A DNA stretch of 64,000 nt from Paenisporosarcina sp. HGH0030 (GTDB lineage: Bacteria; Bacillota; Bacilli; Bacillales_A; Planococcaceae): positions 970,130 to 1,034,129 of the forward strand of contig NZ_KE150421.1 in the NCBI RefSeq assembly GCF_000411295.1, given 5' to 3'. Under the pieces are notes generated by a model. That model saw only the letters and a program-made list of their open reading frames with translations, was not told the origin of the DNA and did no database searches. The position numbers and the translations under genes were made by a program. Shown in pieces: positions 11,501 through 57,509 of the stretch (its first letter is position 1; the number at the start of each line of letters is the position of its first letter).

Positions 11501-11590
11501 TGCTAACCTGCCACGTGTTAGTTCAATAAGAAAAAGAGCTGCCTAAGCACCCCGATGATCTTTTACTAAAGCATTAGTAACAGTTAGTTC
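11501..11590 (+). repeat. CBR copy 1 (leftmost)
   Basis: Left site decayed (CTAACCTGCCACGTGTTAG), then TTCAATAAG, a worn AAAGAGCTGCC module with GATGATC, and a weak right site (ACTAAAGCATTAG). It marks the left edge of the array and abuts the lipoprotein stop. Confidence 0.65.
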
Positions 11591-11595
11591 AATAT

Positions 11596-11985
11596 CTAGT
11601 TGATGTTTAATATGATTGTTTCAGTATGGCCATTCCATTCTATTGTCACTACAACCTCAGCTTCTTCAATGATTTTGGCATTTGTTGGGTTAGCCTCTTT
11701 ACTAGCTTTAAACGTTCCGTTTTCCTCCAATGTTAAACCGCTTCCACCAAAACCTCCTGCATTAGTCTCAACGTTATATTCAATTTCTCCAACTGAATTT
11801 ACATCGTTTCCTTTATATTGAAGTTTTAATTCCTGTTCTTCCCATTCATCTTCGGTTTGAGTAACCTTTAATTCTCCCGTCCAATTATCAGACTCTCCAG
11901 AGAAATCGAAAGTTTTATAGCCACATGCTGATAGCAAAAATGATACCAATACCAGCAACAATAATGCTGAAATCCTTCGACGCAT
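11596..11985 (-). CDS. Secreted lipoprotein of unknown function
   Basis: 129 aa from ATG 11985, chosen for AAAAGGGG upstream. Signal peptide with lipobox LLSACG. The mature part contains FSGESDNWTGEL and a beta-rich domain ending in EVVVTIEWNGHTETIILNIN. Similar small Bacillales lipoproteins are common, but I cannot name the family. A CBR lies directly downstream. Confidence 0.75.
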   Translation of the reverse strand: MRRRISALLLLVLVSFLLSACGYKTFDFSGESDNWTGELKVTQTEDEWEEQELKLQYKGNDVNSVGEIEYNVETNAGGFGGSGLTLEENGTFKASKEANPTNAKIIEEAEVVVTIEWNGHTETIILNIN

Positions 11986-12286
11986 AATACATCCCCTTTT
12001 GCTTTTAAAATACAAATTTATACCCCAAGCCCGATGATCAGTTAATCACCACTTAAAAACTTCAATGATTTACATATATTAACTTATTGAATACCATTCC
12101 AATAATCCCTTCATATAGAACTAAACTTCCTCGTTTTTAGAATAAGAAATGCAAAGGTATGAATTAACTTGTATTCCATTAATAATTTATGCTGGCTATG
12201 TTTTTGGGGAGAATGATTACTAATTTAGTGATAATTAAAACAAGGAGAAATACAAATCAACTTAATCCAGTATTAAAATAATTTCT
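11986..12286. other. Intergenic stretch with a 30-base partial repeat
   Basis: No gene seen. 12069-12098 (TTTACATATATTAACTTATT followed by GAATACCATT) recurs with one mismatch at 48231-48260, where it precedes a CBR-like right half. It may be a strongly diverged left site. Confidence 0.4.
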
Positions 12287-12372
12287 TATTGAACTAATCG
12301 GTTCAGTGAGTGACAAAAAAAGAGCTGTTTAGGCAGCTCTTTAATCTTTAAAAAAGCTTTCGTTAGTTCAAC
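12287..12372 (+). repeat. CBR copy 2
   Basis: Left site worn (TTGAACTAATCGGTTCAGTG). Middle hairpin AAAGAGCTGTTTAGGCAGCTCTTT is a good inverted repeat; right half ends AAGCTTTCGTTAGTTCAACA. Confidence 0.65.
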
Positions 12373-12487
12373 AACTCATAAATCATAAGGTTGAAATACA
12401 AGCGATTTTCCTTGAGCATTTTGTCACGATTGAAAAGCACCCGTCCACAATAGTTATCTTCCAGATATAACGGGCTCTAGGAATAGA

Positions 12488-12535
12488 AAAAACCCCGTAT
12501 AGGTCACTTTTTTAAAGTGTCCACTATTAGGGGTT
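12488..12535. repeat. Imperfect inverted repeat, terminator or IS-end remnant
   Basis: AAACCCCGTATAG...ACTTT pairs with AAAGT...CTATTAGGGGTT. The right part (GTGTCCACTATTAGGGGTTC) recalls the ends of IS3/IS150-type elements, but no transposase is present. It can also act as a terminator for the gene at 12569. Confidence 0.4.
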
Positions 12536-12568
12536 CAGTTCATGGTTCAGTAATCATCTCTGTTATTT

Positions 12569-13036
12569 CTATTCAATAAAGTTTATTTTATTTTCCTGAC
12601 ACCATTCAATCGCAATTTGTTTAAAACACTCATCACGGTATGAATACCATTGATCTTCTATTTCAAAATCTATTATTTTGTCCTTAAACCTTCTAAAGGC
12701 ACCCTTACCCTTAATGGCCCTTAATAAAGATTCCTGCATCCGTTGATCCCTTACTTTTAAACTGAAGTTTTCCATTATTTCATATTCATTCACTGCATAT
12801 TTAGTAGGTAACTCTATATAGTTTTCAAAGTTTTTAACCACATCAATTGCATTCATTCTATTTTCTTGTTCCCATTCAGGTAAATGATCAAATGGTTCTT
12901 CGTCTTCGGCAGCTCTCAAGTCCTCAGATGTAACTATAATTATTTCACCCGTATTAATATTTAGTAATGAACGTGACTCTTCAAACTGTACTTCCATTTC
13001 CTCAATTATATCTTTTAGACTGACTTGTATATTCAT
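12569..13036 (-). CDS. UPF0158 family protein
   Basis: 155-aa acidic cytoplasmic protein. MNIQVSLKDIIEEMEVQFEE, a GEIIIVTSED stretch and the conserved C-terminal AFRRFKDK with QWYSYRDECFKQIAIEWCQEN are typical of UPF0158 (PF03682). Biochemical function unknown. ATG start at 13036 has a GGTGA site. Flanked by CBR copies on both sides as a single-gene unit. Confidence 0.75.
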   Translation of the reverse strand: MNIQVSLKDIIEEMEVQFEESRSLLNINTGEIIIVTSEDLRAAEDEEPFDHLPEWEQENRMNAIDVVKNFENYIELPTKYAVNEYEIMENFSLKVRDQRMQESLLRAIKGKGAFRRFKDKIIDFEIEDQWYSYRDECFKQIAIEWCQENKINFIE

Positions 13037-13178
13037 TATTAGATCACCTTTAGAAGTTTTTTACTATCCCGATAGTTAAACAAAGACTGTTTATTTATTA
13101 TTCGTTACTGATTCATTTATTTTATTAACTTACAACCTCCTTGATTCCATTTCTTTAATCATAATACATATCTCCTTG

Positions 13179-13256
13179 TTTAACTAACCTGCTTAAGTTA
13201 CTTGAATAAGAAAAAGCGATCCTTCTTTATTGAAGAATCGCACCCGTTAGTGAAAA
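13179..13256 (+). repeat. CBR copy 3
   Basis: Left site GTTTAACTAAC / CTGCTTA / AGTTACTTGAA, then TAAGAAAAA, hairpin GCGAT..TCTTTATTGAAG..ATCGC and ACCCGTTAGTG. The loop TTATTGAAG is shared with other copies although the stem differs, with compensating changes. Confidence 0.75.
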
Positions 13257-13279
13257 GTCGACCTAAAGTCTAAATTTAT

Positions 13280-14777: not shown

Positions 14778-14853
14778 AAAAACACCCAACTAAGAGGTCA
14801 GGTGTTTGCACTAAATATAATAAGGGTTCTTCAACTAAAGCACCCGTTAGTAA
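14778..14853 (+). repeat. CBR copy 4 (no left site)
   Basis: Unusual middle hairpin (AAACACC / GGTGTTT) followed by a standard right site CTTCAACTAAAGCACCCGTT. A second inverted repeat, CGGGCGAAA / TTTCGTCCG, follows at 14895-14921. No gene is seen in 14659-15172. Confidence 0.6.
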
Positions 14854-15036
14854 AAAAGAATTCTAATATGAACACTCACAGTGCAAGAATTAAAAAACGG
14901 GCGAAATCAAAGTTTCGTCCGCAGAAGTTTTACTTATTTATTGTATAATTCATCATATCTCTTAAAGAACACAGCCATCCACGTTTCAACTCACTTTGGA
15001 ATGCGTATTCTAGAACCGCCCCCTGAAAGTTTTATA

Positions 15037-15120
15037 CCTTCTTCCACTAAACTTCCCCTTTAGTTGAAGAAGAAAAAGGCTTAACTCCTTATTCAAGTAA
15101 AACAGCCGTAAGTTGAACAA
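15037..15120 (+). repeat. CBR copy 5
   Basis: CTTCCACTAAACTTCCCCTT, TAGTTGAAG, GGCTTAACTCCTTATTCAAG loop with imperfect TAAAAC stem, then GCCGTAAGTTGAACAA. Complete but diverged. Confidence 0.75.
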
Positions 15121-15172
15121 CACAAAAAAACCGACATTTTATTGTCGGTTTCTGAATTAATTTTATATAACC

Positions 15173-16066: not shown

Positions 16067-16203
16067 TTCAACTAACCTGCCCCGTTAGTTTAAGTGTAAC
16101 ATTTCACAATATATTGCCGAAATCTACTTGATGTTTTGGACGTAAAAATAGACCATCGAAATGATGGTCTTGTTTAAACTAAAGCACCCGTAAGTTGAAT
16201 AAG
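16067..16203 (+). repeat. CBR copy 6, long form (type III middle)
   Basis: Perfect left site (ATTCAACTAAC / CTGCCCC / GTTAGTTTAAG), about 60 bases containing TAACATTTCACAAT and CTACTTGATG, hairpin TAGACCATCGAAATGATGGTCT, then TTTAAACTAAAGCACCCGTA. Nearly identical to 39607-39742 and 40451-40589. Confidence 0.9.
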
Positions 16204-16409: not shown

Positions 16410-17228
16410 ATGATTCAACTATCGGGGATGCCCTTTCAACAAAGTGACATGTGGTCGTCTGGTAGTATTGAAAGTATGATCATTCAACGGATGATTGAAG
16501 ATACAGTCGTTTACTCGTATCAATCCATAGGTGAATTATCGTTTGAGCTTAAGTTACGAAAAAATATCATATTAAGTGCAAGAGCCATGAATCAAAGCAA
16601 TGTGCGGTTTGAAACACTTGAAAATTCCCGTGGTAATCCTCAGTACTGGCATATGACGAGTACCGGCGGATTCCTGCTGCGGCATGGAGTAAAACCATCA
16701 GACGCGATTCAAGATATCTACATGAACAGTTCACAATATGCTTTTGAATGTGCTACGGCAATGATCATTATCTATTACCATGCGGTCCTAAACACTATGG
16801 GAGAATCCTTATTTAATCAATTATTTCAAAACATCTATTTATACAGCTGGCAAAATGATTCTGAACTCCAAATAAAACCGTATTATACAGACCATTTTTT
16901 GCCTGGAGATGTCGTATATTTTGAAAATCCGGACTTCGACCCGAGAACCCCTCACTGGAGAGGGGAGAATGCCGTTGTTTTAGGAGATGGTACGTATTTT
17001 GGTCATGGGTTAGGAATAATGACAGCTGAACAAATGATTCATGCTCTGAATCAAACCAGAATGCCAGGGGCAAATCAATCAGCCTATCTGACAAATGTAG
17101 TTGCAAGACCATCTTTTAAACATTTGGCGAAACTTTCGATGTCGCAACCAGGTTATTTGATTCAAAATTACCAACATATCGTCCATCATAACGAAAGTTC
17201 GATTCCAATTGATCGATACATGTTCTAA
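16410..17228 (+). CDS. tgl: Spore coat protein-glutamine gamma-glutamyltransferase Tgl
   Basis: 272 aa, about 25 residues longer than B. subtilis Tgl. It cross-links spore coat proteins (such as GerQ) through isopeptide bonds late in sporulation. Catalytic Cys114 lies in AFECATAM; the following segments PGDVVYFENPDFDP and WRGENAVVLGDGTYFGHGLGI are characteristic. AAAGAGG precedes the ATG. It is a plus-strand gene in a mostly minus-strand array and marks the organism as a spore former. 17229-17535 downstream shows no convincing gene. Confidence 0.92.
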   Translation: MIQLSGMPFQQSDMWSSGSIESMIIQRMIEDTVVYSYQSIGELSFELKLRKNIILSARAMNQSNVRFETLENSRGNPQYWHMTSTGGFLLRHGVKPSDAIQDIYMNSSQYAFECATAMIIIYYHAVLNTMGESLFNQLFQNIYLYSWQNDSELQIKPYYTDHFLPGDVVYFENPDFDPRTPHWRGENAVVLGDGTYFGHGLGIMTAEQMIHALNQTRMPGANQSAYLTNVVARPSFKHLAKLSMSQPGYLIQNYQHIVHHNESSIPIDRYMF

Positions 17229-17535
17229 TCGTAATCGTATCGTTCCCTGAGCCATACTGTGAATAAAAAACACAATAACAATTGTCACATTTCAAAAAAG
17301 TTATGTCTCACTACTTTACAAACTTTGAGAAAAAGTTTTCTGCCGAGAAGCTAATTCCACCATTTTATCCGCCATTATCCCGTAACCCCTGCCTACTTCC
17401 GGTCTTTGTGAAGAAAAAATCACTGCGTAATAAGGTGGTTCAGGAGTTTTTGCAATTCCACTCATATGTAAGTCCCACTAAAAAATCACTTTTGAAACAA
17501 TATTAGAAATTTAAACATGATTTCAGCTCACCTTG

Positions 17536-17603
17536 TTCAACTAACCTGCCCCGTTAGTTGAATAAGAAATGGTCTTAATCCTTATTGAAGTAAAGCACGC
17601 GTT
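17536..17603 (+). repeat. CBR copy 7
   Basis: Perfect left site (GTTCAACTAAC / CTGCCCC / GTTAGTTGAATAAG), then AATCCTTATTGAAGTAAAGC and a short right end ACGCGTTAAC. Abuts the methyltransferase stop. Confidence 0.85.
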
Positions 17604-17626
17604 AACAGGCATGTTAGGATATTTGT

Positions 17627-18358
17627 TTACTTCACACAAGAAAAAGCCAATACAACTGGAATTCGCTGTCTTCTTACAAATTCTTCTTCGCTACTGAAAT
17701 GTTCACGTTTTGGTGTACCTTCACGTAAATCTAGCACTGTAAAGCCAACTTGTCTAAGTGCTATAAAATAATTTTCAATTGTACGATGATACTTAACCAC
17801 TATTTGATCAATCCAAGGCTCTTTTCTTTCACCCTCACGGAAATAGTCATCAACAATCCAATTACCGCGTTTGTCCCCAGATTGCTTACTAACAAATGAT
17901 GAAGTTGTTAGTGGATGCTGGATACTAAAAGCAAATCTTCCGTTTCCTTTAAGTGTTTTATGAACATCTTGAAACAGGCGGTTAATGTCTGAAACATAAT
18001 GGAATGCAAATCGAGATGTTACAATATCAAATGCCTCTGTCGGATAGTCATAAGATTCCATTGTTTCAAAGTGTATTGTCCCGTTTGGTTCAAGTACGTT
18101 AGAGCGTGCCACTTCCACCATTTGTTCCGAACCTTCAACTCCTGTGTAGTTTTTTGCCCCTAACTGTAAGAGTTCTTTTCCGAACGAGGCATCACCACAT
18201 CCTAAATCTAAGACGCTTTTATCTTGAATGTTCCCAATTAATTCATAGATAATTGGACCTTCAATGGCATTATTTGGACTATCTTGTCTGTTTCTTCTTT
18301 TCATGTAATTTGAAAAAAAATCTGTTTGATCGTAAACATTTGATCCTCTGAATTCCAT
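17627..18358 (-). CDS. Class I SAM-dependent methyltransferase
   Basis: 243 aa. Motif I VLDLGCGDASFGKEL (about 54-68), motif II GVEGSEQM, motif post-II VTSRFAFHYVSD and GRFAFSIQHP. A Methyltransf_11-type small-molecule methyltransferase of unknown substrate. Single-gene unit between CBR copies 7 and 8. Confidence 0.85.
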   Translation of the reverse strand: MEFRGSNVYDQTDFFSNYMKRRNRQDSPNNAIEGPIIYELIGNIQDKSVLDLGCGDASFGKELLQLGAKNYTGVEGSEQMVEVARSNVLEPNGTIHFETMESYDYPTEAFDIVTSRFAFHYVSDINRLFQDVHKTLKGNGRFAFSIQHPLTTSSFVSKQSGDKRGNWIVDDYFREGERKEPWIDQIVVKYHRTIENYFIALRQVGFTVLDLREGTPKREHFSSEEEFVRRQRIPVVLAFSCVK

Positions 18359-18518
18359 CGAAACGTCTCCTCATCTAATTAATTCTCTTTTACTAAACTA
18401 ATTTGAGATGTCAGGCGATTCATCGCTAAATGCACAAATTAATGTATTCTATCACATGTTTATTAGAATAGACAAGCTTACTTTCCAGAAAAAATTCAAC
18501 TAATATTAACTACTCTTT

Positions 18519-18590
18519 ATTGAACTAAACTGCCTCGTTAGTTCAATAAAAAAGTGACTTAACCTCGACTTGAGGTAAAGCACCCACCGT
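18519..18590 (+). repeat. CBR copy 8
   Basis: TTGAACTAAAC / TGCCTC / GTTAGTTCAATAA, GACTTAACCTCGACTTGAGG with TAAAGC, then a worn ACCCACCGTT. Confidence 0.8.
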
Positions 18591-18598
18591 TTGCTTAA

Positions 18599-19165
18599 TT
18601 AGACGATACTCTCTCTGTAAAAATCCACTAAATCAGGGTCCTTTTCCTCTAAAATGTCTTCAAAGCTATCCCAACCCTGCTTACTTATAAACCCAGCTTC
18701 CTGTGATGTAATTGGAATAAGCCAGGTCATTAGAATTGAAGAGTTTGTATCAATATCGTAGCTATGGAAGCTATCATGAAAATAAACTGGAATGCTGGAA
18801 TATAAAGCTTCAAGGTTCGAATCATCAAATAATGAACCGTACGGACCTATTACATCCCCTCTCAAGAGAGCAGAGTGATCTTTAAGAATGGACATACCAA
18901 CCTGGTGGAGAATACCTGGTATGCCTTCATCCCCAAATTCCGAATAAGAAACCATTATTAACTCTTGACGAATCTCCATTTCATTTTCAGGCGATGCCAA
19001 AATATGATTGCTCAATCCTAACGTGGAGTAGGTCGTAGTTTTTTGGAAGGGACCTTTGCTAAATTTAACAATTTGGAATGGTAATTCTGCACTTTCCGCA
19101 TCATCCCCAAACCCATAAAGAATTTCACCTAAATTATCTTCTAAAAACTCAATAAATGTTTTCAT
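18599..19165 (-). CDS. Suppressor-of-fused (SUFU) domain protein
   Basis: 188 aa from ATG 19165, chosen for TGGAGG 8 bases upstream (a longer frame to 19219 has no site). KTTTYSTLGLSN, RQELIMVSY and the C-terminal WLIPITSQEAGFISKQGWDSFEDILEEKDPDLVDFYRESI are the bacterial SUFU domain hallmarks (PF05076). Bacterial SUFU proteins are often immunity proteins of contact-dependent toxins. No toxin gene is adjacent. Confidence 0.8.
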   Translation of the reverse strand: MKTFIEFLEDNLGEILYGFGDDAESAELPFQIVKFSKGPFQKTTTYSTLGLSNHILASPENEMEIRQELIMVSYSEFGDEGIPGILHQVGMSILKDHSALLRGDVIGPYGSLFDDSNLEALYSSIPVYFHDSFHSYDIDTNSSILMTWLIPITSQEAGFISKQGWDSFEDILEEKDPDLVDFYRESIV

Positions 19166-19253
19166 TTTTACCTCCAGAATAAATAATTTTGGATTAATTC
19201 TGTCTAGCACTAATTCCACTGTGATTCAATTTTATCATTTTAATTCTTATTAT

Positions 19254-19280
19254 ATTAACCTGCCATGTTAGTTGAATAAG
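19254..19280 (+). repeat. Solo CBR left site (copy 9)
   Basis: TATTAACCTGCCATGTTAGT plus TGAATAAG; no middle or right site. The gene at 19282 stops immediately after it. Confidence 0.75.
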
Positions 19281-19281
19281 G

Positions 19282-19728
19282 TTATTTCATTTTTTCTAAA
19301 ATCAGATAATCCTTTGTTTTTAAGATTGAAATAGAATTTTTATTTGTAAAATTAATTAAATCTATAAATACGTTGTCGGGTTCGAAATTAACAACATGAA
19401 TGTTAAATCCCTTTTTGATTTTTATAATAGCACCTTTGTTTGTCCAACCTAATCGTTTAAATTTTATCTTAATTATTTGATTGGGATATATTACTTTTTT
19501 ATAGAGAGGAATTGCTAAGAATAATGGTTGATACGTCAGAAAACCGTCATTTATTTCAAACTTGTATCGAATAAAGAATGATACAACAAGAAAAACAAGA
19601 ACTACTATTTGAAAATATAATAACCCTTTGGAAAAATTAAATCCTGTAATATTTGAAATTAATAAACCCATCATCATCGCAAATAAAAATCCTATAACTC
19701 CTCGCTGACCTTTTGCATTATATACCAA
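19282..19728 (-). CDS. Membrane protein with PH-like domain, unknown
   Basis: 148 aa. Two N-terminal membrane segments (about 12-30 and 36-52), then a basic beta-rich domain (INDGFLTYQPLFLAIPLYKKVIYPNQIIKIKFKRLGW) resembling the bacterial PH/EbsA type. TTG start with GGAGGG 7 bases upstream. Function unknown. The stop abuts a solo CBR site. Confidence 0.7.
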   Translation of the reverse strand: MVYNAKGQRGVIGFLFAMMMGLLISNITGFNFSKGLLYFQIVVLVFLVVSFFIRYKFEINDGFLTYQPLFLAIPLYKKVIYPNQIIKIKFKRLGWTNKGAIIKIKKGFNIHVVNFEPDNVFIDLINFTNKNSISILKTKDYLILEKMK

Positions 19729-19780
19729 CTTTATTCCCTCCTCTTATTTGATTTAAAATAAACTTACAAATTCATTTAAC

Positions 19781-20344
19781 TCACCATATTCTTTGAACGT
19801 TCAGTAATTCCTGTTCATTGAATTCCATTCTATAAATATCAGGTTTTGATGTGCTATGTAAAAAATTTAAGTCATAGGTGCTATCGAAATATCCCATCAT
19901 CAAGGTCATAATAGCCCCGTGAGTTCCTATAACTACTTTTTTATTTCTCAAAGTATCTAATAGTTCTTTTAAAACTTTTATTGCTCTTTCTTGACAATCA
20001 GCATTTGATTCTCCTCCCTCTAAGGAGAAATTCGAATCGAAAAACGACTTTTCCAAAATCTGAACCAATTCCTTATCAGCTAATCTTTTGATTTCAGAAG
20101 AAAATATCCTCTCTTTTAAATCCTCAAAGACTAAAACTTCTTGCCCTATTTGTTGAGCTATCTTTTCAACAGTCAATATTGAACGTAGGTATGGGCTTGA
20201 AACAACTGTATCGATTTTTTCATCTTTCAATATGTCAGTTACTCGTTGAGCATCTAAATAACCTTTTTCGGTTAATCCTCTTGTTCTATCATTTCCTTCT
20301 TTTGGCGACTCACCGTGTCTCACCATATAAAAAACTGTACTCAA
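19781..20344 (-). CDS. Histidine phosphatase (phosphoglycerate mutase-like) family protein
   Basis: 187 aa. VRHGES near the N-terminus carries the catalytic His; TRGLTEKGYLDAQRV, SSPYLRSILTVEKIA, the conserved late HGA (VIGTHGAIMTL) and Glu in SLEGGES complete the family pattern. TTG 20344 preceded by GGGGGGAA is the likely start. Phosphomonoesterase of unknown substrate. Confidence 0.85.
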   Translation of the reverse strand: MSTVFYMVRHGESPKEGNDRTRGLTEKGYLDAQRVTDILKDEKIDTVVSSPYLRSILTVEKIAQQIGQEVLVFEDLKERIFSSEIKRLADKELVQILEKSFFDSNFSLEGGESNADCQERAIKVLKELLDTLRNKKVVIGTHGAIMTLMMGYFDSTYDLNFLHSTSKPDIYRMEFNEQELLNVQRIW

Positions 20345-20381: not shown

Positions 20382-20470
20382 CTTCAACTCTACTGCTACG
20401 TTAGTTTATTAAGAAAAAGAGTTGCTTTAAGCTGACCGATGTTCTTCAACTAAAGCACCCGTTACTTTAA
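20382..20470 (+). repeat. CBR copy 10
   Basis: CTTCAACTCTACTGCTACGT, TAGTTTATTAAGAAAAAGAG, worn GTTGCTTTAAGC stem, then GTTCTTCAACTAAAGCACCC with GTTAC. All parts present but diverged. Confidence 0.8.
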
Positions 20471-20501
20471 GTACATTTCTTATTATTCCGTGAAATGGAT
20501 A

Positions 20502-21804: not shown

Positions 21805-21862
21805 TTACACTAACCTGCTTCGTTAGATCAATAAGGAAAATGGCTGCTTGAGCATCTTGTCA
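21805..21862 (+). repeat. CBR copy 11
   Basis: TTTACACTAAC / CTGCTTC / GTTAGATCAATAAG, then AATGGCTGCTTGAGC; no right site. The gene at 21868 stops six bases beyond. Confidence 0.7.
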
Positions 21863-22084: not shown

Positions 22085-22240
22085 TTCAAAACTGCCCCGA
22101 TAATTCAAGTAGGAAAAGAGTTGCCTTCAGCAGCCCAATGATATTCAACTAAAGCATTCGACTCCAAGTAGACATAACACCCGGATTGGGAAGTATTCGA
22201 TTTCATTACTCCACAAGAAAAGCTGCCCTTTAAAGGCAGC
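22085..22240 (+). repeat. CBR copy 12, compound
   Basis: 22085-22172 is a diverged CBR (TTCAAAACTGCCCCGATAAT, GAGTTGCC, ATTCAACTAAAGCATTCG). It runs into GACATAACACC..GGGAAGTATTC and hairpin AAGCTGCCCTTTAAAGGCAG, a module also seen at 41130-41313 and partly at 37885-38003. Confidence 0.7.
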
Positions 22241-23200: not shown

Positions 23201-23262
23201 GTTCAACTAACCTGCCCCGTTAGTTGAAGTAGAAAGAGTGCTTAAACAACCCAAGCAATTCA
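23201..23262 (+). repeat. CBR copy 13 (left site intact)
   Basis: Perfect left site: GTTCAACTAAC / CTGCCCC / GTTAGTTGAAGTAG; then a worn GAGTGCTTAAACAACCC and no clear right site. Confidence 0.8.
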
Positions 23263-24168: not shown

Positions 24169-24266
24169 CCTTTGTAAAAATCAACAATAAACGATAACAG
24201 AGCCTTTAATTAAATCTTTCTAATTCTCTCCTCCTTTTTATTCACCATCGATTGTTGTTCCTTCTT

Positions 24267-24290
24267 TATCTGCCCTGTTAGTTGAATAAG
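24267..24290 (+). repeat. Decayed CBR left site (copy 14)
   Basis: ATCTGCCCTGTTAGTTGAAT followed by AAG; left arm lost. Confidence 0.6.
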
Positions 24291-24914: not shown

Positions 24915-24996
24915 CTTCAACTAAACTGCTGCGTTAGTTGAATAATAAAAATGCTTTGCATCTTTATTGAAGTAAAGCACTCCGTTAGTTCAACAA
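24915..24996 (+). repeat. CBR copy 15
   Basis: CTTCAACTAAAC / TGCTGC / GTTAGTTGAATAA, hairpin GCTTTGCATCTTTATTGAAG with TAAAGC, right site ACTCCGTTAGTTCAACAA. Complete. Confidence 0.88.
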
Positions 24997-25007
24997 TAAC
25001 CCATCTT

Positions 25008-25845: not shown

Positions 25846-25908
25846 AAGTTCAATTAGAAATGGTTTCACTCCGTTTTGAAGTAAAGTACCCGATAATTGA
25901 ATAAGGGT
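25846..25908 (+). repeat. CBR copy 16
   Basis: AGTTCAATTAGAAATGG, TTTCACTCCGTTTTGAAGTA, then AGTACCCGATAATTGAATAA. Left site largely lost. Confidence 0.75.
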
Positions 25909-26309: not shown

Positions 26310-26355
26310 TATTGAACTAACTTGTCCCGTTAGTTGAATAAGAAAAAAGAGCTGA
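26310..26355 (+). repeat. CBR copy 17 (left site plus truncated middle)
   Basis: TTGAACTAAC / TTGTCCC / GTTAGTTGAATAAG, then AAAAAAGAGCTGAC. The hairpin partner and right site are missing, as at 43541-43590. Confidence 0.85.
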
Positions 26356-27123: not shown

Positions 27124-27160
27124 TTCTTCAACTAACCTACCCAATTAGTTGAACAAGAAG
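27124..27160 (+). repeat. Solo CBR left site (copy 18)
   Basis: CTTCTTCAACTAA / CCTACCCAA / TTAGTTGAACAAGAAG, an extended palindrome. It is followed at 27162-27243 by a long hairpin (AAAGAGCC..CTCCTTG with CAAGAG..GGCTCTTT) unlike the other middles. Confidence 0.8.
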
Positions 27161-27261
27161 AAAGAGCCGTATAGGAGTCCTCCTTGTTTGATAATGAGTC
27201 AATGACAGTTGACACTCATGATCATACAAGAGGGCTCTTTTTCGTTCAAGACCTCGAACAT

Positions 27262-27310
27262 TCTTCAAACAGGAAAGCTGCCCTGTTAGTTGAAGAAGAA
27301 TTAAGGCTCA
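27262..27310 (+). repeat. CBR copy 19, decayed
   Basis: TTCTTCAAACAGGAAAGCTG then CCCTGTTAGTTGAAGAAG. 27360-27400 (ACCTTCTTCGATCAACAC) resembles the downstream part of the copy at 36888. Confidence 0.6.
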
Positions 27311-36160: not shown

Positions 36161-36292
36161 ACAGACCAAATAATTGATCCTTATTGAAGTAAAGCACCCG
36201 TTAGTTGAATAAGAATTTCCTTTTTGACTTACCTTCTGAACGATCGTCTGATCCGATGTACATGCAAATAAAGATACAGCTAAAAAAGTCAT
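36158..36292 (-). pseudogene. Truncated lipoprotein gene running into a CBR
   Basis: ATG 36292 gives a signal peptide with lipobox (MTFLAVSLFACTSDQ), then the frame reads into CBR copy 21 and ends at TAA 36158. The real C-terminus has been replaced by repeat sequence. Confidence 0.5.
36175..36213 (+). repeat. CBR copy 21 (right half only)
   Basis: TGATCCTTATTGAAGTAAAG, CACCCGTTAGTTGAATAAG. No left site; truncates a lipoprotein gene. Confidence 0.85.
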
Positions 36293-36887: not shown

Positions 36888-36965
36888 TTGAACTAAACTG
36901 CCCCCGTTAGTTGAAGAAGTTCAACAAAATAAGCGTTAATCCTTCTTGGATCAACACTTCGAAAA
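36888..36965 (+). repeat. CBR copy 22
   Basis: TTGAACTAAAC / TGCCCCC / GTTAGTTGAAGAAG, then TTCAACAAAATAAGCGTTAA and TCCTTCTTGGATCAACAC. Middle and right site diverged. No gene in 36755-37345 otherwise. Confidence 0.8.
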
Positions 36966-37884: not shown

Positions 37885-38003
37885 CCATCCATCGATTCGA
37901 TTACTCAACTGGCATGTATAGTCCATACACAACCAGTTGACATAGCATCACAATCGGGAAGTATTCCTTTTATTCAACTAAAGCACCCGTTAGCACAATA
38001 AGA
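37885..38003 (+). repeat. CBR copy 24, long form (type IV middle)
   Basis: GATTCGATTACTCAACTGG, a segment ending ACCAGTTGACATAGCATCAC, GGGAAGTATTCC, then ATTCAACTAAAGCACCCGTT. Shares modules with 41130-41313 and 22085-22240. Confidence 0.75.
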
Positions 38004-38418: not shown

Positions 38419-38449
38419 ATTCAACTAACATGCCCCGTTAGTTTAATAA
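38419..38449 (+). repeat. Solo CBR left site (copy 25) fused to a coding end
   Basis: ATTCAACTAAC / ATGCCCC / GTTAGTTTAATAAC. The minus-strand DUF4304 gene ends inside the right arm: the TTA of GTTAG is its TAA stop. Confidence 0.88.
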
Positions 38450-38854
38450 CATAGAAATCCAAAAACGGTCTGATGTATTTAATAAACCCACAACACTTGA
38501 AGCTATTTCATCAAAATCATCTTCTGTTTTTGCATTCTCAAAATCAAACCATATTCCTTCTTCATCAACTGATTTTGCTCCTAACCTAAACCGATTGTTT
38601 AGATGATGAGCAGTTGCTTTGTTTGGTGGGATTTTTTCTCCCCAACTCATAGTTACACCTTCTATTGGACACGTTGCCAATTCAACTACAATTGAACCAC
38701 CCCATCTGTTGAATTGGATAGTAATTAAATCTATAATCTTTTCATTTGTCCGTCTAAAGTGAGGAAACGACCCTTTAAATTCTTGTTTTCTTAAAACCGG
38801 TGTCACAATTTTTTTCAAGGCATTATCCATCATTTTTCTTTGATTCGATTCCAT
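38438..38854 (-). CDS. DUF4304 domain protein
   Basis: 138 aa: MDNALKKIVTPVLRKQEFKGSFPHFRRTNEKIIDLITIQFNRWGGSIVVELATCP is the DUF4304 pattern (PF14137), a family common in polymorphic-toxin immunity loci; function unproven. AAAGGAGAAA precedes the ATG. The last codons and stop come from CBR site 25. Confidence 0.75.
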   Translation of the reverse strand: MESNQRKMMDNALKKIVTPVLRKQEFKGSFPHFRRTNEKIIDLITIQFNRWGGSIVVELATCPIEGVTMSWGEKIPPNKATAHHLNNRFRLGAKSVDEEGIWFDFENAKTEDDFDEIASSVVGLLNTSDRFWISMLLN

Positions 38855-38879: not shown

Positions 38880-38962
38880 GTTCAACTAACCTGCCCAGTT
38901 AGCTCAATAAGAAAAAATGCTTTACTCCTTCTTGAAGTAAAGCACTCGTTAATTTAATAAGA
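38880..38962 (+). repeat. CBR copy 26, complete short form
   Basis: GTTCAACTAAC / CTGCCCA / GTTAGCTCAATAAG, AAAAAATGCTTTACTCC hairpin with TTCTTGAAG loop, GTAAAGC, ACTCGTTAATTTAATAAG. Confidence 0.92.
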
Positions 38963-39606: not shown

Positions 39607-39742
39607 TTTAACACTAACCTGCCCCGTTAGTTTAAGTGTAACATTTCACAATGGATTTCTGAGATCTACTTGATGATTCGGATAAAAAATAGACCATCGA
39701 AATGATGGTCTTGTTTAACTAAAGCACCCGTTAGTCAAATAA
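39607..39742 (+). repeat. CBR copy 27, long form (type III middle)
   Basis: ACACTAAC / CTGCCCC / GTTAGTTTAAG, CATTTCACAATGGATT, hairpin TAGACCATCGAAATGATGGTCT, TTTAACTAAAGCACCCGTTA. Sister of 16067 and 40451. Confidence 0.92.
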
Positions 39743-39789
39743 ATTCCATTTAACCTTCTAGCTTAGCTCTTCTTTCAAGAAGTAGTAAT

Positions 39790-40450: not shown

Positions 40451-40589
40451 TCTTCAACTAACCTGCCCCGTTAGTTTAAGTGTATCATTTCACAATGGAT
40501 GGCCGAAATCTACTTGATGTTTTGGACGTAAAACTAGACCATCGAAATGATGGTCTTGTTTAACTAAAGCACCCGTTAGTTGAAGAAGG
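40451..40589 (+). repeat. CBR copy 28, long form (type III middle)
   Basis: CTTCAACTAAC / CTGCCCC / GTTAGTTTAAG; TGGACGTAAAA and hairpin AGACCATCGAAATGATGGTCT, right site TTTAACTAA / AGCACCC / GTTAGTTGAAGAAG. The best-preserved long copy. Confidence 0.93.
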
Positions 40590-41129: not shown

Positions 41130-41313
41130 GTCACGGACGATCCGTCCGCAAACATCGATTCTGTTACTCAACTGGATTGTATAACGTATGCACGCTTGGT
41201 TGACATAACACCACAATTAGGGAGTATTCAACTTCATAACTCAATAAGAAAAAGCCGCCTTGTAAAGGCAGCTGGTTGTTCAACTAAAGCACCCGTTAGT
41301 TCAATAAGAAGGA
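41130..41313 (+). repeat. CBR copy 29, long form (type IV middle)
   Basis: CATCGATTCTGTTACTCAAC, GGTTGACATAACACCACAAT, GGGAGTATTCAACTTC, hairpin GCCGCCTTGTAAAGGCAGC and a perfect right site TTCAACTAA / AGCACCC / GTTAGTTCAATAAG. Confidence 0.85.
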
Positions 41314-41365: not shown

Positions 41366-42015
41366 TTAAGGAAGCCAATCATGACAATTATTAGCTAATT
41401 GCTGCAAATCCTCTATAAATGTACTACGTTATATCCATCACAAACAGCATGATGCACTTGTAATGAAATTGGCAACAACGTTTTATCTTTCATATTTAAA
41501 TATTTCCCCCCTGTAATGATGGGTAATAAAAAGTCGCTATCATTATTTATATTTAGGTTAAAGCCAGTAAAACTAACCCAAGGAATACTAGATATAGGAA
41601 AAGAATTTTTGGGTTCATTATCTTTTGTAAAGAGACCTTTAACTTCAGCGTATTGCTTTATATCACTTTGATAGTTTTTATAAAAGACAGTAAATTCATT
41701 AGAAAACTCCGTCCATATGCTTGAGAATGATTTATTATCACTGTGGAAGATTGTATAACTTGGAATCATTTTATCCCAATACCCTAGAACACCCTCATCA
41801 TTAAAGCAAGTTCTAAATTCTTCATGAGAATTTACTGTCTTGCTGATCATGTAAATAAAAGTAGGGTATAGCTTAATTCCCTTGGTACGAAGCTGTTCCA
41901 ATAACGTTGTGATGTCTATATTTGCTGTTATGCTAAAGGTACACTTTAGATTTAAATAATGCTCGAAATACGGGTTTCTATCCCATTTTTCTTTATCAAT
42001 TAAATTAAACTTCAC
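41366..42015 (-). pseudogene. cat: Type A chloramphenicol acetyltransferase gene, frameshifted near the 3' end
   Basis: Frame from ATG 42015 encodes 200 aa of a CAT: MKFNLIDKEKWDRNPYFEHY, PTFIYMISKTVN, then the catalytic HHAVCDGYNV, and stops at 41413. CATs have about 20 residues more; these are found one frame over (FIEDLQQLANNCHDWLP, TAA 41366). A single indel near 41415 therefore clips the last helix. The catalytic His is kept, so partial activity cannot be excluded. AGGAGG lies upstream of the ATG. CAT acetylates chloramphenicol or, in some relatives, other acceptors. Confidence 0.8.
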
Positions 42016-42129: not shown

Positions 42130-42213
42130 CTTATTCCACTAACCTGCTTCGTTAGTTGAATAAGAAAAAGGCTTTAACCCTTATTGAAGTAAAGCACCCG
42201 TTAGTTGAAGAAG
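42130..42213 (+). repeat. CBR copy 30, complete short form
   Basis: ATTCCACTAAC / CTGCTTC / GTTAGTTGAATAAG, AAAAAGGCTTTAACCC, TTATTGAAGTAAAGC, ACCCGTTAGTTGAAGAAG. Confidence 0.93.
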
Positions 42214-43540: not shown

Positions 43541-43590
43541 TATTGAACTAACCTGCCCCATTAGTTCAATAAGAAAAAAAGAGCTGACTC
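43541..43590 (+). repeat. CBR copy 31 (left site plus truncated middle)
   Basis: TTGAACTAAC / CTGCCCC / ATTAGTTCAATAAG, AAAAAAAGAGCTGAC, then unrelated sequence. Same break point as 26310-26355. Confidence 0.88.
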
Positions 43591-44857: not shown

Positions 44858-44876
44858 AACTTGCAAGAAAATCTCT

Positions 44877-44935
44877 ATCCCGTTACTTGAATAAGAGAAA
44901 GACTTTACTCCTTATTGAAGTAAGCGCCAGTTTAT
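44877..44935 (+). repeat. CBR copy 32
   Basis: CCCGTTACTTGAATAAG, AGAAAGACTTTACTCC, TTATTGAAGTAAGC, GCCAGTTTAT. Left arm lost, right site decayed. Confidence 0.75.
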
Positions 44936-48665: not shown

Positions 48666-48754
48666 TTCAACTATACTGCCTCTTTAGTTGAATAAGAAAA
48701 AAGAGCTGACTAGGCAGCTCTCTGATCTTTACCACATGCACACGTTAAATAAAT
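48666..48754 (+). repeat. CBR copy 35 (type II middle)
   Basis: TTTCAACTATAC / TGCCTC / TTTAGTTGAATAAG, AAAAAAGAGCTGAC / GGCAGCTCT hairpin, TGATCTTTACC, ACACGTTAAATAAATAA. Confidence 0.85.
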
Positions 48755-51216: not shown

Positions 51217-51298
51217 ATTCAGCTAACCTGCTCCGTTAGTTCAATAAGAAAAAAAGCTTCACTCCTTAATGGAGTAAAGCACCCGTTGGTTCAACAAC
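51217..51298 (+). repeat. CBR copy 36, complete short form
   Basis: TTCAGCTAAC / CTGCTCC / GTTAGTTCAATAAG, AAAAAAAGCTTCACTCC, TTAATGGAGTAAAGC, ACCCGTTGGTTCAACAA. Confidence 0.9.
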
Positions 51299-51557: not shown

Positions 51558-51612
51558 AACAGTAGCCTCAAAGGATGGCTGCTGTTTTTCAACATAAGCA
51601 CCCGTTACTTCG
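51558..51612 (+). repeat. CBR copy 37 (middle plus right site)
   Basis: Hairpin AAACAGTAGCC / GGCTGCTGTTT, then TTCAACATAAGCACCCGTTA. Left site missing. Confidence 0.7.
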
Positions 51613-51649
51613 TATATTACTTTGAACGAAAGAATCCGGATCAAATGGG

Positions 51650-51856: not shown

Positions 51857-52048
51857 TTCTTACTTAGACTTTTAATTCCAACATCGAGATAAAAAAAGTA
51901 AAAACTCATTTTTCAAGCTACAAAGTAATGGTTTTTATTAGTTGATTTAAATTACTTCAGTTAAAAAGTTCAGCAAATTTATATACTCAAAACATAGCAT
52001 AAGCATAACATTAAAAATCCCTTAGTTGGATATATTTAGAATATTTTT

Positions 52049-52074
52049 TGAACTAACCTGGTCCGTTAGTTCGG
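52049..52074 (+). repeat. CBR left site flanking the recombinase remnant (copy 38a)
   Basis: TTGAACTAAC / CTGGTCC / GTTAGTTCGG. The recombinase fragment begins about 30 bases later. Confidence 0.85.
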
Positions 52075-52103
52075 TTGTCGAATCGGAGAAATCATTTCGT
52101 TAG

Positions 52104-52442
52104 AAAGGAACCATATTAATTGGTCCAATCGATCTGCTTAAACGCTATATGGAGAGTCGCACAGAAAATGCCCTGGCCATCTTCGTCACAGTAAGACATC
52201 CCCATAAAATGAATGTCGCTCAAATGAGATACATCATCAAGAAGATTACATATCGTCCTGGAAAAGAGATCCATCCCCATCTACTTAGAAACAGCTATGC
52301 TACTCATTTGTTGAATATTGGAACACCCATTGAAGTCGTTCAAAGTCTTCTGGGACACGAGAAGAGCGCCCCCCTCTGATTTACGCTCAACTAAGCGAAA
52401 GACTAAGGAAAGAGTATTATCAGAAGTACTTTAAAATGTAAA
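52104..52442 (+). pseudogene. Tyrosine recombinase (Xer/phage integrase-like), C-terminal remnant, frameshifted
   Basis: About 110 codons of the catalytic domain. LLKRYMESRTENALAIFVTVR..HKMNVAQMRYIIKKITYRPG, then the HxxR box IHPHLLRNSYATHLL and LLGHEKSA with the second His. The first frame stops at 52377-52379 within a run of C's; one frame over, LIYAQLSERLRKEYYQKYFKM carries the Tyr nucleophile. The N-terminal arm-binding domain and the first catalytic Arg are missing. It is inactive as it stands. It sits between a CBR left site and a CBR right half. Confidence 0.85.
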
Positions 52443-52505
52443 AAGGGCAACGTCATAATTGACATTGCCCAAATTGACTAAAGCGCGCTTTAGTTGAAGA
52501 AGGAA
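52443..52505 (+). repeat. CBR right half flanking the recombinase remnant (copy 38b)
   Basis: Hairpin AAGGGCAACGTC / GACATTGCCC (starting 52441), then AAATTGACTAAAGCGCGCTT, TAGTTGAAGAAGGAA. Together with copy 38a it forms one CBR whose two halves bracket the recombinase. Confidence 0.78.
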
Positions 52506-54503: not shown

Positions 54504-54590
54504 ATTGAACTAAACTGCCCCGTTAGTTGAATAAGAAAAAAAGCTGCCAAGGCAGCCTAATGATCTTTAACTAAAGCACCCGTTAGTGAA
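54504..54590 (+). repeat. CBR copy 39, complete (type II middle)
   Basis: TTGAACTAAAC / TGCCCC / GTTAGTTGAATAAG, AAAAAAAGCTGCCAAGGCAG, TGATCTTTAACTAAAGCACC, CGTTAGTG. Best example of the type II form. Confidence 0.93.
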
Positions 54591-54626
54591 AAGCGTCTCT
54601 GTTTAATACAGAAACATCTCTAATAT

Positions 54627-55923: not shown

Positions 55924-56053
55924 TGCATTGCCTCTTTCTGCTGTTTAACTTGCTATGTTAATCAACTGCTCAAGTAAGTAATTGTAACAAAACTCACGAG
56001 TTTATGTTCTTATTTAATTGATTAAATTAACCATTTATTGATTAATTTCCTTA

Positions 56054-56090
56054 TTGAGTTAACCTGCCCCGTTAGTTGAATAAGAAAAAT
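56054..56090 (+). repeat. Solo CBR left site (copy 41)
   Basis: TTGAGTTAAC / CTGCCCC / GTTAGTTGAATAAG, AAAAATTAG; no middle hairpin or right site. 56091-56389 holds only the promoter region of the next gene. Confidence 0.85.
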
Positions 56091-56389
56091 TAGTATAGGT
56101 TTATGAACATAGAATTATGGTCAGAGTTTTGTGACGCGGAATTTATTTTAATGATATTTTGAAAAACACTATTGTCGTGTCCAGATAAGGACGAGCTTTG
56201 CTACATAGGGGATTAATAATTATTCCCAGTCAGAGCTTGACTAATATTCCAAAAATATCAGAGTGGTGTAGAAGGTATAAATTACCTTCTTTTTCTTTGC
56301 CTAATCCATGTTATGATTCGTTAGGTGCTTTACATTTTCAAATAATAAGATATTAAAATACTGATAGAAAACCTAGGAGGAAAACATAC

Positions 56390-57049
56390 ATGAAGAAACT
56401 AATATCGTTAGTTCTGCTGATGTCTTTATTCAGTGGTGTATCATCAGTTAGTGCAATCACAACATTTAAGGAACCACCTTTTCAAGCATATAAAGTAACC
56501 CAAGGAGATTCATTTTGGTTTATTGCTAATAGATACGGATTAGATTACAAAAAATTAATGGAGCTAAACCCAACAGTTGATCCTATGCAAATGAAAGTTG
56601 GATCAGTGATTCAACTAAAACCAGCTTCACAATCAACTCCAACTCCAACTCCACCAACCACAGCTTCATCTGCTCTTTCAGCATATGAACAACAAGTGGT
56701 TACATTGGTAAATCAAGAACGTGCAAAAGTTTCTCTTCCTGCTTTGAAAGTTGATGCGAAATTATCTGAAGTCGCAGGCATCAAATCACAAGATATGAAA
56801 AACCTTAATACTATGTCTCATGACGGAACTTATGGATCACCTTTCGATATGATGAAACATTTTGGAGTTACTTATAAATCAGCTGGCGAAAATATTGCTC
56901 AAGGTCAAACAACCCCTGCAGAAGTCATGAAAGCTTGGATGAATTCTCCTGGTCATAAAGCTAACATCTTGAGTAAAAACTTTACTCATATCGGAGTTGG
57001 CCATGTAGCAAGTGGAAACTATTGGACTCAACAATTTATAGGAAAATAA
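56390..57049 (+). CDS. Secreted LysM + CAP (SCP/PR1) domain protein
   Basis: 219 aa. Signal peptide (to about SVSA, residue 22); LysM domain YKVTQGDSFWFIANRYGLDYKKLMELNP (about 34-75); Pro/Thr linker; CAP domain VTLVNQERAKVSLPALKVDAKLSEVAGIKSQDM...MSHDGTYGSPFDMM...AGENIAQG...AWMNSPGHKANILSKNFTHIGVG. Same architecture as YkwD/YlbC-type spore or wall proteins. AGGAGGAAA before the ATG. Confidence 0.9.
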   Translation: MKKLISLVLLMSLFSGVSSVSAITTFKEPPFQAYKVTQGDSFWFIANRYGLDYKKLMELNPTVDPMQMKVGSVIQLKPASQSTPTPTPPTTASSALSAYEQQVVTLVNQERAKVSLPALKVDAKLSEVAGIKSQDMKNLNTMSHDGTYGSPFDMMKHFGVTYKSAGENIAQGQTTPAEVMKAWMNSPGHKANILSKNFTHIGVGHVASGNYWTQQFIGK

Positions 57050-57085
57050 GAGAAAGAAGTGTGGTTAATTCCATGCTTCTTTTTT
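57050..57085 (+). terminator. Intrinsic terminator
   Basis: GAAAGAAGTGTGG / CCATGCTTCTTTTTTT hairpin just after the CAP gene. Confidence 0.75.
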
Positions 57086-57264
57086 TATCTGTCTTATTAT
57101 ATTGTCGAAACATTTTAAATAATTTTATCCTTTGAGGGTAGCTTTTTCTTATTGCTTATAAGAGTTCGTAAAAGTGACGTTAAAAAGTGAACGTTCATTA
57201 AAAGGTATTATAGTATTGCGAACTATGTAAATGACTAAATAGGAGCAATTCAAAGCAGTTCGTA

Positions 57265-57338
57265 AAAGTGCCCCTTTAGTTGAATAAGAAAAAAAGCTGT
57301 CTAAACAGCTAAATGATCTTCAAGTAAAGCACCCGTTC
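57265..57338 (+). repeat. CBR copy 42 (type II middle)
   Basis: GTGCCCCTTTAGTTGAATAA, GAAAAAAAGCTGTCTAAACA, TGATCTTCAAGTAAAGC, ACCCGTTC. Left arm lost. Confidence 0.85.
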
Positions 57339-57342
57339 TTAT

Positions 57343-57450
57343 TCACCAAAAAATATAATTTATGAAGCTTATAATAAACGTTGTTACCGCCAAATAACCC
57401 CCCATTCTTACTTCCTTGTTTTTAAAACTTAATTCAAATCGTTCACTCAT
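57343..57450 (-). CDS. 35-aa membrane peptide
   Basis: ATG 57450 after GGGGTGGAGTAT: MSERFELSFKNKEVRMGGYL then AVTTFIISFINYIFW, stop 57343. A charged start and one C-terminal membrane helix. Its stop lies 5 bases from the CBR right end and its start 26 bases from the next CBR, so it is a complete minimal unit. Confidence 0.55.
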   Translation of the reverse strand: MSERFELSFKNKEVRMGGYLAVTTFIISFINYIFW

Positions 57451-57475
57451 ATACTCCACCCCATTTATATCTTTC

Positions 57476-57509
57476 TTCAACTAACCTGCCCCGTCAGTTG
57501 AATAAGAAA
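57476..57509 (+). repeat. Solo CBR left site (copy 43, rightmost)
   Basis: TTCAACTAAC / CTGCCCC / GTCAGTTGAATAAG. Right edge of the array. Confidence 0.9.

What the first reader, a model, noticed from the sequence alone, without database searches (positions are those of the whole stretch)
11501..57509. Integron-like gene-cassette array built on a one-orientation repeat (CBR)
About 42 copies of one repeat lie between 11.5 and 57.5 kb and none were seen in the core block before or in the region after. All recognised copies are on the same strand. Most intervals hold one short gene (or a sigma/anti-sigma, ArsR/SRPBCC or MarR/reductase unit) of unrelated function. A passive repeat or MITE family would be expected in mixed orientation and not spaced by gene. 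This is the layout of an integron cassette array, which I do not know to be described in this form in Gram-positives. Inference: recombination between identical sites inserts and removes units.
Basis: partly seen in the sequence, partly recalled or inferred. Interest (0 to 1): 0.95.

Follow-up and report, generated by a model that had tools for sequence, protein, structure and literature searches.

The report
Integron-like gene cassettes in Bacilli
Environmental relatives of Bacillus carry arrays of short unrelated genes separated by a repeated DNA site, and two strains of one species have gained, lost and even swapped genes at these sites, likely through an enzyme whose gene travels as one of the units, so this would be an integron-like gene-shuffling system built on a different enzyme.

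Summary
The repeat is real: all window copies lie on one strand, and the genome holds 108 copies (26-base pattern, up to 3 mismatches; 0 with the reversed pattern) in about eleven clusters. There are two forms, A (AACTAAC-CTGCCCC-GTTAGTT) and B (AACTAA-AGCACCC-GTTAGTT), often paired around a variable stem-loop. Against a second genome of the same species, 22 of 36 ends of 18 differences fall at a site (9% by chance); two units (997 and 1,684 bp) have exchanged places between loci 256 kb apart. The likely enzyme is a 279-aa Xer-type tyrosine recombinase, itself a unit between sites: all 38 of 261 genomes with a close copy have sites, none of the 156 site-free genomes has one. Site direction follows the replichore, not the genes. 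It works like an integron but failed tested membership features: the enzyme lacks the IntI insertion and the site is not one attC hairpin; no attI platform was found. Ten paper searches listed no such arrays in Bacilli. That this enzyme moves the units, and how, is inferred.

The parts
11507..57506 (+). cassette array: co-oriented A and B sites with unrelated genes between them (27.3-36.2 kb has no site)
11507..11529 (+). A site with a 2-base insertion; left end of the array and of a strain-difference block
12119..12146 (+). A site, degenerate
   Evidence: 6 mismatches
14830..14859 (+). B site
   Evidence: 5 mismatches
15045..15121 (+). A-B composite site (A 15045, B 15092)
   Evidence: block border against strain G115
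16070..16203 (+). A-B composite site (A 16070, B 16174) with a long stem-loop
17539..17566 (+). A site, exact consensus
   Evidence: 0 mismatches
18523..18550 (+). A site
19253..19280 (+). A site
20386..20474 (+). A-B composite site (A 20386, B 20445)
21808..21835 (+). A site
22085..22112 (+). A site, degenerate
   Evidence: 8 mismatches
23205..23232 (+). A site
24263..24290 (+). A site, degenerate
24919..24997 (+). A-B composite site (A 24919, B-like 24970)
25876..25905 (+). B site; border of a strain difference
26315..26342 (+). A site
27130..27298 (+). two A-like sites around a short insert whose right end matches the IS110-family insert of strain G115
36184..36213 (+). B site; border of a strain difference
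36892..36919 (+). A site
37973..38002 (+). B site; left border of a unit replaced in strain G115
38423..38450 (+). A site starting a unit of about 0.5 kb also found in another array of this genome (L044)
38884..38961 (+). A-B composite site (A 38884, B 38932)
39612..39743 (+). A-B composite site (A 39612, B 39714)
40456..40588 (+). A-B composite site (A 40456, B 40559)
41279..41308 (+). B site, exact consensus
   Evidence: 0 mismatches
42137..42213 (+). A-B composite site (A 42137, B 42184); right border of the unit replaced in G115
43546..43573 (+). A site; in strain G115 it holds a 1,751-bp IS110-family insert
44868..44895 (+). A-like site, degenerate
   Evidence: 8 mismatches
48669..48696 (+). 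A site
51221..51298 (+). A-B composite site (A 51221, B 51269)
51588..51617 (+). B site, degenerate
52051..52502 (+). decayed recombinase unit: A site 52051-52078, recombinase remnant about 52032-52432, stem-loop and B site 52473-52502
54508..54595 (+). A-B composite site (A 54508, B 54566) with stem-loop
54928..54998 (+). A-B composite site (A 54928, B 54969)
56057..56084 (+). A site
57261..57288 (+). A-like site, degenerate
   Evidence: 7 mismatches
57479..57506 (+). last A site of the window array; in strain G115 it holds the same-length insert as 43546
41413..42015 (-). example unit gene: chloramphenicol acetyltransferase-like, present here and absent from the replaced stretch in G115
16410..17228 (+). 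example gene reading along the sites: transglutaminase-like (PF20085)

Best explanation
This is a genome-wide gene-cassette system: strain comparison shows short gene units gained, lost and swapped with breakpoints inside a repeated site, and a 279-residue Xer-type tyrosine recombinase, itself carried as one such unit, likely cuts and rejoins these sites next to GTTAG. Shown: two site forms in one direction, A (AACTAAC-CTGCCCC-GTTAGTT) and B (AACTAA-AGCACCC-GTTAGTT); exchanged units begin with GTTAG and end with an A or a B left half; the same unit start occurs behind an A half in one place and a B half in another, so the join lies right of spacer position 4, at or beside CCC|GTTAG. Inferred: a unit leaves as a circle by recombination between the direct sites at its ends and enters at another site of either form. 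Because A and B differ in the left part of the spacer, only the right border needs to match, which suggests exchange of one strand pair finished by replication, as in integrons, rather than the two-step exchange of Xer or lambda Int. Shown: sites follow the replichore whatever the direction of the genes. Inferred and open: new sites are founded by a strand-specific reaction at the fork, or wrongly pointing sites are purged because they invert the chromosome arm.
For: Two 99%-identical copies of the recombinase unit (1,273 bp) at 499 and 588 kb end at A and B with unrelated flanks. Swap of a 997-bp and a 1,684-bp unit between two loci in the two strains, 99.5 and 99.8% identical, breaks inside B and A. 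22 of 36 ends of 18 strain differences within 25 bp of a site, background 9.1%, P 1.5e-14; 9 with both ends. 89 same-direction against 3 opposite-direction repeated segments relative to the sites. 18 pairs (27 sites) with the same unit start behind A and behind B. Recombinase: inside arrays; 38 of 38 genomes with a close copy have sites against 67 of 223 others, Fisher P 7e-18; in 78 loci of many genera sites point with the recombinase gene (A 365:14, B 257:6), an A-pattern site 85-105 bp before the start in 37 of 78, a stem-loop after the stop in 67 and a GCACCC-GTTA-like end in 64 by a lenient pattern. Catalytic residues conserved in 22 sequences (roles recalled). Orientation: 100 of 100 listed sites in G115.
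Against: G115 has 119 sites but no recombinase at E 1e-80; a remnant was found in its fetched stretches. 14 of 40 genomes with 10 or more sites have no close copy. Co-occurrence is not corrected for relatedness. Five of 18 strain differences have no end at a site and four have one. No circle, cleavage or excision has been observed. The arms beyond GTTAG show no covariation at the two variable positions within A or B sites, and the same-left-flank pairs constrain the join only weakly. Single-strand use rests on spacer logic and orientation only.
Confidence: 0.8

Rival explanations
1. The repeats are passive (terminators or MITE-like elements spread earlier) and the gene differences come from ordinary RecA recombination between dispersed copies.
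For: The stem-loop between A and B looks like a terminator for leftward genes; five of 18 strain differences lie away from sites; G115 differs although it has no full recombinase now.
Against: Exchange occurs between A and B forms that share only about 15-20 bases around CCC|GTTAG, little for RecA (general knowledge). Single units swap cleanly with 99.5-99.8% identity while the locus-specific stem-loops stay. Sites keep one direction beside genes of either strand (29 against and 7 along, of 36 ORFs chosen by hand). Strong link to one recombinase that is itself a unit.
Confidence: 0.1
2. The units are moved by the housekeeping XerC/XerD pair, as in Acinetobacter dif modules, and the array recombinase is a passenger.
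For: A and B are dyad sites with a 6-7 base spacer, like Xer sites in general layout (recalled); G115 and other site-rich genomes lack the recombinase.
Against: Sites are directly repeated; copy number varies from 0 to 126 among genomes although XerC/XerD-like proteins are found in all 19 genomes searched; the recombinase occurs only in genomes with sites.
Confidence: 0.05
3. A Y1/HUH single-strand transposase (IS200/IS605 or RAYT type) spreads the hairpins at the lagging strand, and gene linkage is secondary.
For: Replichore-locked direction and hairpin-forming sites would fit (general knowledge).
Against: No PF01797 match in G000, G003, G012 and G030, four of the five most site-rich of the 19 genomes searched, while site-poor genomes have it. 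It would not explain two-ended swaps of units.
Confidence: 0.03

Closest known systems
Integrons (IntI, attI, attC), including sedentary chromosomal arrays and CALINs
   Same: Arrays of unrelated short genes separated by co-oriented dyad sites with a variable middle; single-unit gain, loss and swap by a tyrosine recombinase (here inferred); GTT-bounded join; arrays without a neighbouring integrase; orientation tied to replication, as in 25 of 30 sedentary integrons (PMC5371416, passages); an IS110-type element sits inside the sites, as IS1111-attC elements do (PMC11187229, passages)
   Different: Recombinase scores 95.9 against a cut-off of 265 for IntI and lacks the IntI insertion; two usable half-sites A and B instead of one attC; predicted folds are separate hairpins; recombinase is itself a unit; no attI platform found; dozens of loci per genome; most genes read against the site direction. 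IntegronFinder 2.0 reports one complete integron in Firmicutes, Limnochorda pilosa, and a few CALINs (PMC9024848, passages)
Xer-dependent dif (pdif) modules of Acinetobacter
   Same: Gene modules bounded by short tyrosine-recombinase sites and shuffled as units (PMC6449649, abstract); an IS family inserts next to those sites too (PMC10132070, search listing)
   Different: Those use host XerC/XerD and dif-like sites, mainly on plasmids; here sites are all direct, chromosomal in the main, with a dedicated recombinase
bcr1, Bhal-1 and other dispersed stem-loop repeats of Bacilli (PMC2267715, passages); REP/RAYT
   Same: Dispersed intergenic repeats with hairpins in related genera
   Different: No described gene-unit exchange at those repeats in what I read; no sequence comparison could be made here; Y1 proteins absent from four of the five most site-rich genomes of 19

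Membership tests
Integron | IntI integrase (NCBIfam TIGR02249 above cut-off) | tested here: not met
   95.9 bits against cut-off 265; best family is NF040815 XerA type, 224.2 against 220
Integron | IntI-specific insertion (I2 helix) needed for folded single-strand sites (PMC7790495 abstract; PMC8138268 passages) | tested here: not met
   the extra block of IntI1 of R388 is absent from this recombinase, as from XerC and XerD of the same genome
Integron | attI site and promoter in a fixed platform beside the integrase, integrase outside the cassettes | tested here: not met
   recombinase units lie between sites; an A-pattern site 85-105 bp upstream in 37 of 78 loci could be an attI analogue but was not tested as one; no promoter was tested
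Integron | attC: one imperfect hairpin with RYYYAAC/GTTRRRY ends | tested here: not met
   end boxes AACTAAC/GTTAGTT are close to the recalled consensus; 45 composites fold better than shuffled (-12.8 and -13.8 against -5.7 kcal/mol) but the three printed folds are separate hairpins; no covariation at two variable positions within A, B or composite outer arms, though overall arm complementarity at A is above shuffled (z 4.1)
Integron | array of cassettes exchanged at the site | tested here: met
Tyrosine recombinase superfamily | catalytic R-K-H-R-H-Y set | tested here: met
   R138, K162, H254 and Y263 invariant, H228 and R231 at least 90% conserved in 22 sequences; assignment of roles recalled
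Xer-dif modules | dif-like sites used by host XerC/XerD | tested here: inconclusive
   sites are directly repeated and tied to another recombinase; use by XerC/XerD was not testable
IS200/IS605, REP/RAYT | Y1 (HUH) transposase | tested here: not met
   no PF01797 match in G000, G003, G012, G030

The most novel reading that the evidence does not exclude
An independent invention of the integron: a Xer/XerA-like recombinase that travels as one of its own cassettes, with no fixed platform, founds and feeds dozens of cassette arrays around Bacilli chromosomes and on plasmids, inserting units in a strand-specific way at the replication fork so that nearly every site on a chromosome arm points the same way.
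Probability: 0.5. Interest if true: 0.96.

Novelty: new variant of a known kind. Interest (0 to 1): 0.92.

Why it matters
Integrons are the textbook engine of gene stockpiling in Gram-negative bacteria and are very rare in Firmicutes. If a second cassette engine runs through Planococcaceae and Bacillaceae, a large pool of mobile accessory genes (regulators, transporters, hydrolases, transferases, some resistance-like) has been hidden as scattered intergenic repeats. What an integron minimally needs (platform, folded strand, IntI insertion) becomes testable by comparing two independent solutions, and the replichore rule gives a direct readout of strand use.

Tried and rejected
Passive repeat or terminator reading: rejected because units swap at the sites and sites keep their direction beside genes of either strand. 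HUH transposase: not in four of the five most site-rich of 19 genomes. Known RNA family: no Rfam match above gathering score in the window. Folded attC-like substrate: little support. Reading the join from HSP ends alone was blurred by the conserved arms; the A/B comparison was sharper, but its same-left half is weak (spacer position 5 agrees in 65% of 68 pairs against 49% of random pairs; 14 same-left A/B pairs on 11 sites look artefactual), and one of the printed same-right A/B pairs (L150/L160) looks like a stem-loop match rather than a unit start. The first strain comparison (28 differences) held three spurious links in one chain; the stricter rerun (anchors of 200 bp or more, that chain left out, three IS inserts set aside) is the one counted; of its nine locus pairs h had no match and i no difference. 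The AlphaFold2 model of the recombinase was poor (mean pLDDT 60) and was not used. A recombinase subfamily at 60-68% identity (27 of 261 genomes) is not tied to these sites. The place of IntI1 in the tree was not read because of its very long branch. Papers: a search with site letters listed only four papers, which I did not open; ten searches in all listed no description of such arrays in Bacilli; preprints and most subscription journals are not held.
Full report
What is there. A 26-base pattern has 13 window hits with at most 3 mismatches and none in 100 shuffles. Loose scans give 32 A and 20 B hits on the + strand; after dropping four double or chance hits, 31 A and 18 B remain, plus one A at 11507. 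A reads TTSAACTAAC-CTGCCCC-GTTAGTTSAATAAG, B reads TTSAACTAA-AGCACCC-GTTAGTTSAATAAG. In 21 arrays from four genomes (G000, G003, G006, G012) 270 A and 251 B cores score at 4 mismatches or fewer, some of the B ones surely by chance; 126 neighbouring pairs are A then B within 200 bp, and 172 are B then A at 200 bp or more. The usual order is therefore gene, A, stem-loop, B, gene.

Genes between sites. Pfam scans of 30 ORFs of the array show unrelated families: sigma factors, ArsR with AHSA1, transglutaminase, methyltransferase, SUFU, histidine phosphatase, hydrolases, DNA-alkylation repair, DinB, chloramphenicol acetyltransferase, MFS, flavodoxin-like, iron transport, HpaB, EamA; six of the 30 have no Pfam match. 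Of 36 ORFs that I chose by hand, 29 read against the sites and 7 along them.

Whole genome. The window is C1:970130-1034129 of a 3.52-Mb genome in five contigs. The pattern occurs 57 times forward and 51 times reverse, 0 in the reversed control. Along the main contig the listed copies are minus up to 658 kb and plus from 987 kb; looser copies near 2.21 Mb are mixed. In all 25 fetched loci with four or more A sites the strand reading GTTAG has negative GC skew; among 11 loci with one to three A sites, one (L050) is mixed and one (L096) goes the other way. In the complete same-species genome G115 (dnaA at 331) all 100 listed of 119 sites follow the replichore: minus from 0.28 to 1.73 Mb, plus from 2.11 to 3.49 Mb. 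In G166 and G170, other genera of the family, 85 of 97 and 47 of 53 typed sites (of 97 and 65) fit when ter is put exactly opposite dnaA; 16 of the 18 misfits lie within about 0.1 Mb of that assumed point, on one side of a single switch, and two (3.444 Mb in G166) are plain exceptions. By clusters 29 of 33 fit (one-sided P 5e-6).

Units move. Single units recur in different arrays within and between genomes, 89 in the same and 3 in the opposite direction relative to the sites. Two copies of a 1,273-bp recombinase unit at 499 and 588 kb are 99% identical and end at A on the left and B on the right with unrelated flanks; a further shared segment starts at CCCGTTAG behind a B half in one place and an A half in the other. 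More boundaries are shown. At 37993/42130 this genome has 4,136 bp where G115 has 511 bp, with breaks at GCACCC|GTTAG and CTGCYYC|GTTAG. Over seven array regions with differences, three IS inserts set aside, 9 of 18 differences have both ends within 25 bp of a site, 4 have one and 5 none; that is 22 of 36 ends against 9.1% for random positions, P 1.5e-14. One of the five, a clean 5.7-kb difference at 17405-23100, has neither end at a site. The clearest case is a swap: a 997-bp and a 1,684-bp unit lie at about C1:1.390 and 1.646 Mb in this genome and in exchanged places in G115, 99.5 and 99.8% identical, with breaks inside B on the left and A on the right, the locus-specific stem-loops staying behind.

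Where the join lies. Among 1,250 sites in the fetched loci, 18 pairs (27 sites) share the unit start but have an A half in one place and a B half in the other. For A-A pairs with the same unit start the spacer is identical in 42 of 253, which is the random rate of 17%, and the last base of the left arm is at the random rate (53%), whereas in 68 pairs with the same unit end that base agrees in 79%. The join is therefore right of spacer position 4, at or beside CCC|GTTAG.

The enzyme. A Pfam integrase search of 19 genomes showed a distinct recombinase inside arrays of site-rich genomes. This genome has two intact copies (279 aa from TTG), a 5' stretch at the end of L041 with no continuation found in L040, and a remnant in the window array. 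Copies of G003 and G011 are intact; those of G006 and G012 are broken; that of G030 runs off its contig and is broken too. It best fits NF040815 (XerA type) and falls far under the IntI cut-off; solved relatives by sequence are XerA/XerC-like and XerD, IntI4 being weaker. It lacks the insertion of IntI1 and forms its own clade apart from XerC and XerD of the same genomes. 2,508 proteins match at E 1e-20; the 120 listed are 77-97% identical. In 261 genomes of the order sample, 38 have a close copy (75% or more, my grouping) and all 38 have sites, median 26; of the other 223, 67 have sites; none of the 156 site-free genomes has a close copy. 27 genomes have only a 60-68% relative and are no richer in sites than the rest. 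Relatedness was not corrected for. A genome-contig scan kept 78 loci, from Paenisporosarcina, Psychrobacillus, Viridibacillus, Lysinibacillus, Sporosarcina, Bacillus, Neobacillus, Peribacillus, Oceanobacillus and others; a Chryseobacterium label among them is probably misnamed. There the sites point with the recombinase gene (A 365 to 14, B 257 to 6), an A-pattern site lies 85-105 bp before the start in 37 of 78, and the stop is followed by a stem-loop in 67 of 78 and a GCACCC-GTTA-like end in 64 of 78 by a lenient pattern. Hence the recombinase is itself a unit. Seven plasmid records hold a relative; the Sporosarcina psychrophila plasmid has nine co-oriented sites around it with mercury-resistance and other genes between. 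The four phage records that match are only 34-37% identical.

Mechanism. I commit to site-specific exchange by this recombinase between direct A/B sites, releasing and inserting units, with the join at the GTTAG border. Shown: the units, their ends, their movement, the linked enzyme. Inferred: that this enzyme does it, that a circle is the intermediate, that one strand pair is exchanged. The replichore rule is shown; its cause is not. Founding insertions that use one strand at the fork would fit, and so would loss of inverted sites because recombination between them inverts the arm. Composite sites fold better than shuffled sequence on both strands, but the printed folds are separate hairpins and variable arm positions do not covary, so I do not claim a folded substrate.

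Comparison. It works like an integron but fails membership on enzyme, site fold and platform. The IntegronFinder 2.0 survey names one complete integron in Firmicutes and a few CALINs (PMC9024848, passages). Sedentary integrons are also biased relative to replication, 25 of 30 (PMC5371416, passages). Acinetobacter dif modules share the module idea with XerC/XerD (PMC6449649, abstract). A further parallel: in G115 a 1,751-bp insert sits at the same point inside three A sites; the one examined encodes an IS110-family transposase, much as IS1111-type elements target attC (PMC11187229, passages).

Noticed in passing
window 43553-43557 and 57486-57490 (empty here, filled in strain G115), L051 8604-8608; L140 17890-19645 in G115; short related insert at window 27130-27298: A 1,751-bp insert lies at the same point inside three A sites of G115; the examined one encodes an IS110-family transposase (PF01548, PF02371). 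The other two agree in length, and one of them in its ends. The cassette site seems to be its target.
   Followed up: partly
27 of 261 genomes, for example G085:C1:640542-641381: A sister recombinase subfamily at 60-68% identity is not associated with these sites; it may use a different repeat.
   Followed up: no
window 41413-42015 (-): A chloramphenicol acetyltransferase-like gene (PF00302) lies in the stretch that strain G115 lacks.
   Followed up: no
window 17405-23100: A clean 5.7-kb difference to G115 has breakpoints 119-215 bp away from any site core, so another route of gain or loss also acts here.
   Followed up: partly
window 29300-29998 and L040 (C1 about 0.64 Mb): A 699-bp stretch at the end of an SLH-domain gene is repeated at 98% identity, without sites at its ends.
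   Followed up: no
window 28172-28282 and 46916-47026: A 111-base repeat (85% identical) with an inner inverted repeat ATAAGGTCAACC...GGTTGACCTTAT, a different family from the cassette site.
   Followed up: no
L240 9110-11820 (Sporosarcina psychrophila plasmid pSP10-266k): merA and merR lie between co-oriented B and A sites on a plasmid, with an IS110-family transposase gene in the next interval.
   Followed up: no
G166:C1:3443584 and 3445425: Two neighbouring sites point against the replichore rule in G166; a local inversion is possible.
   Followed up: no
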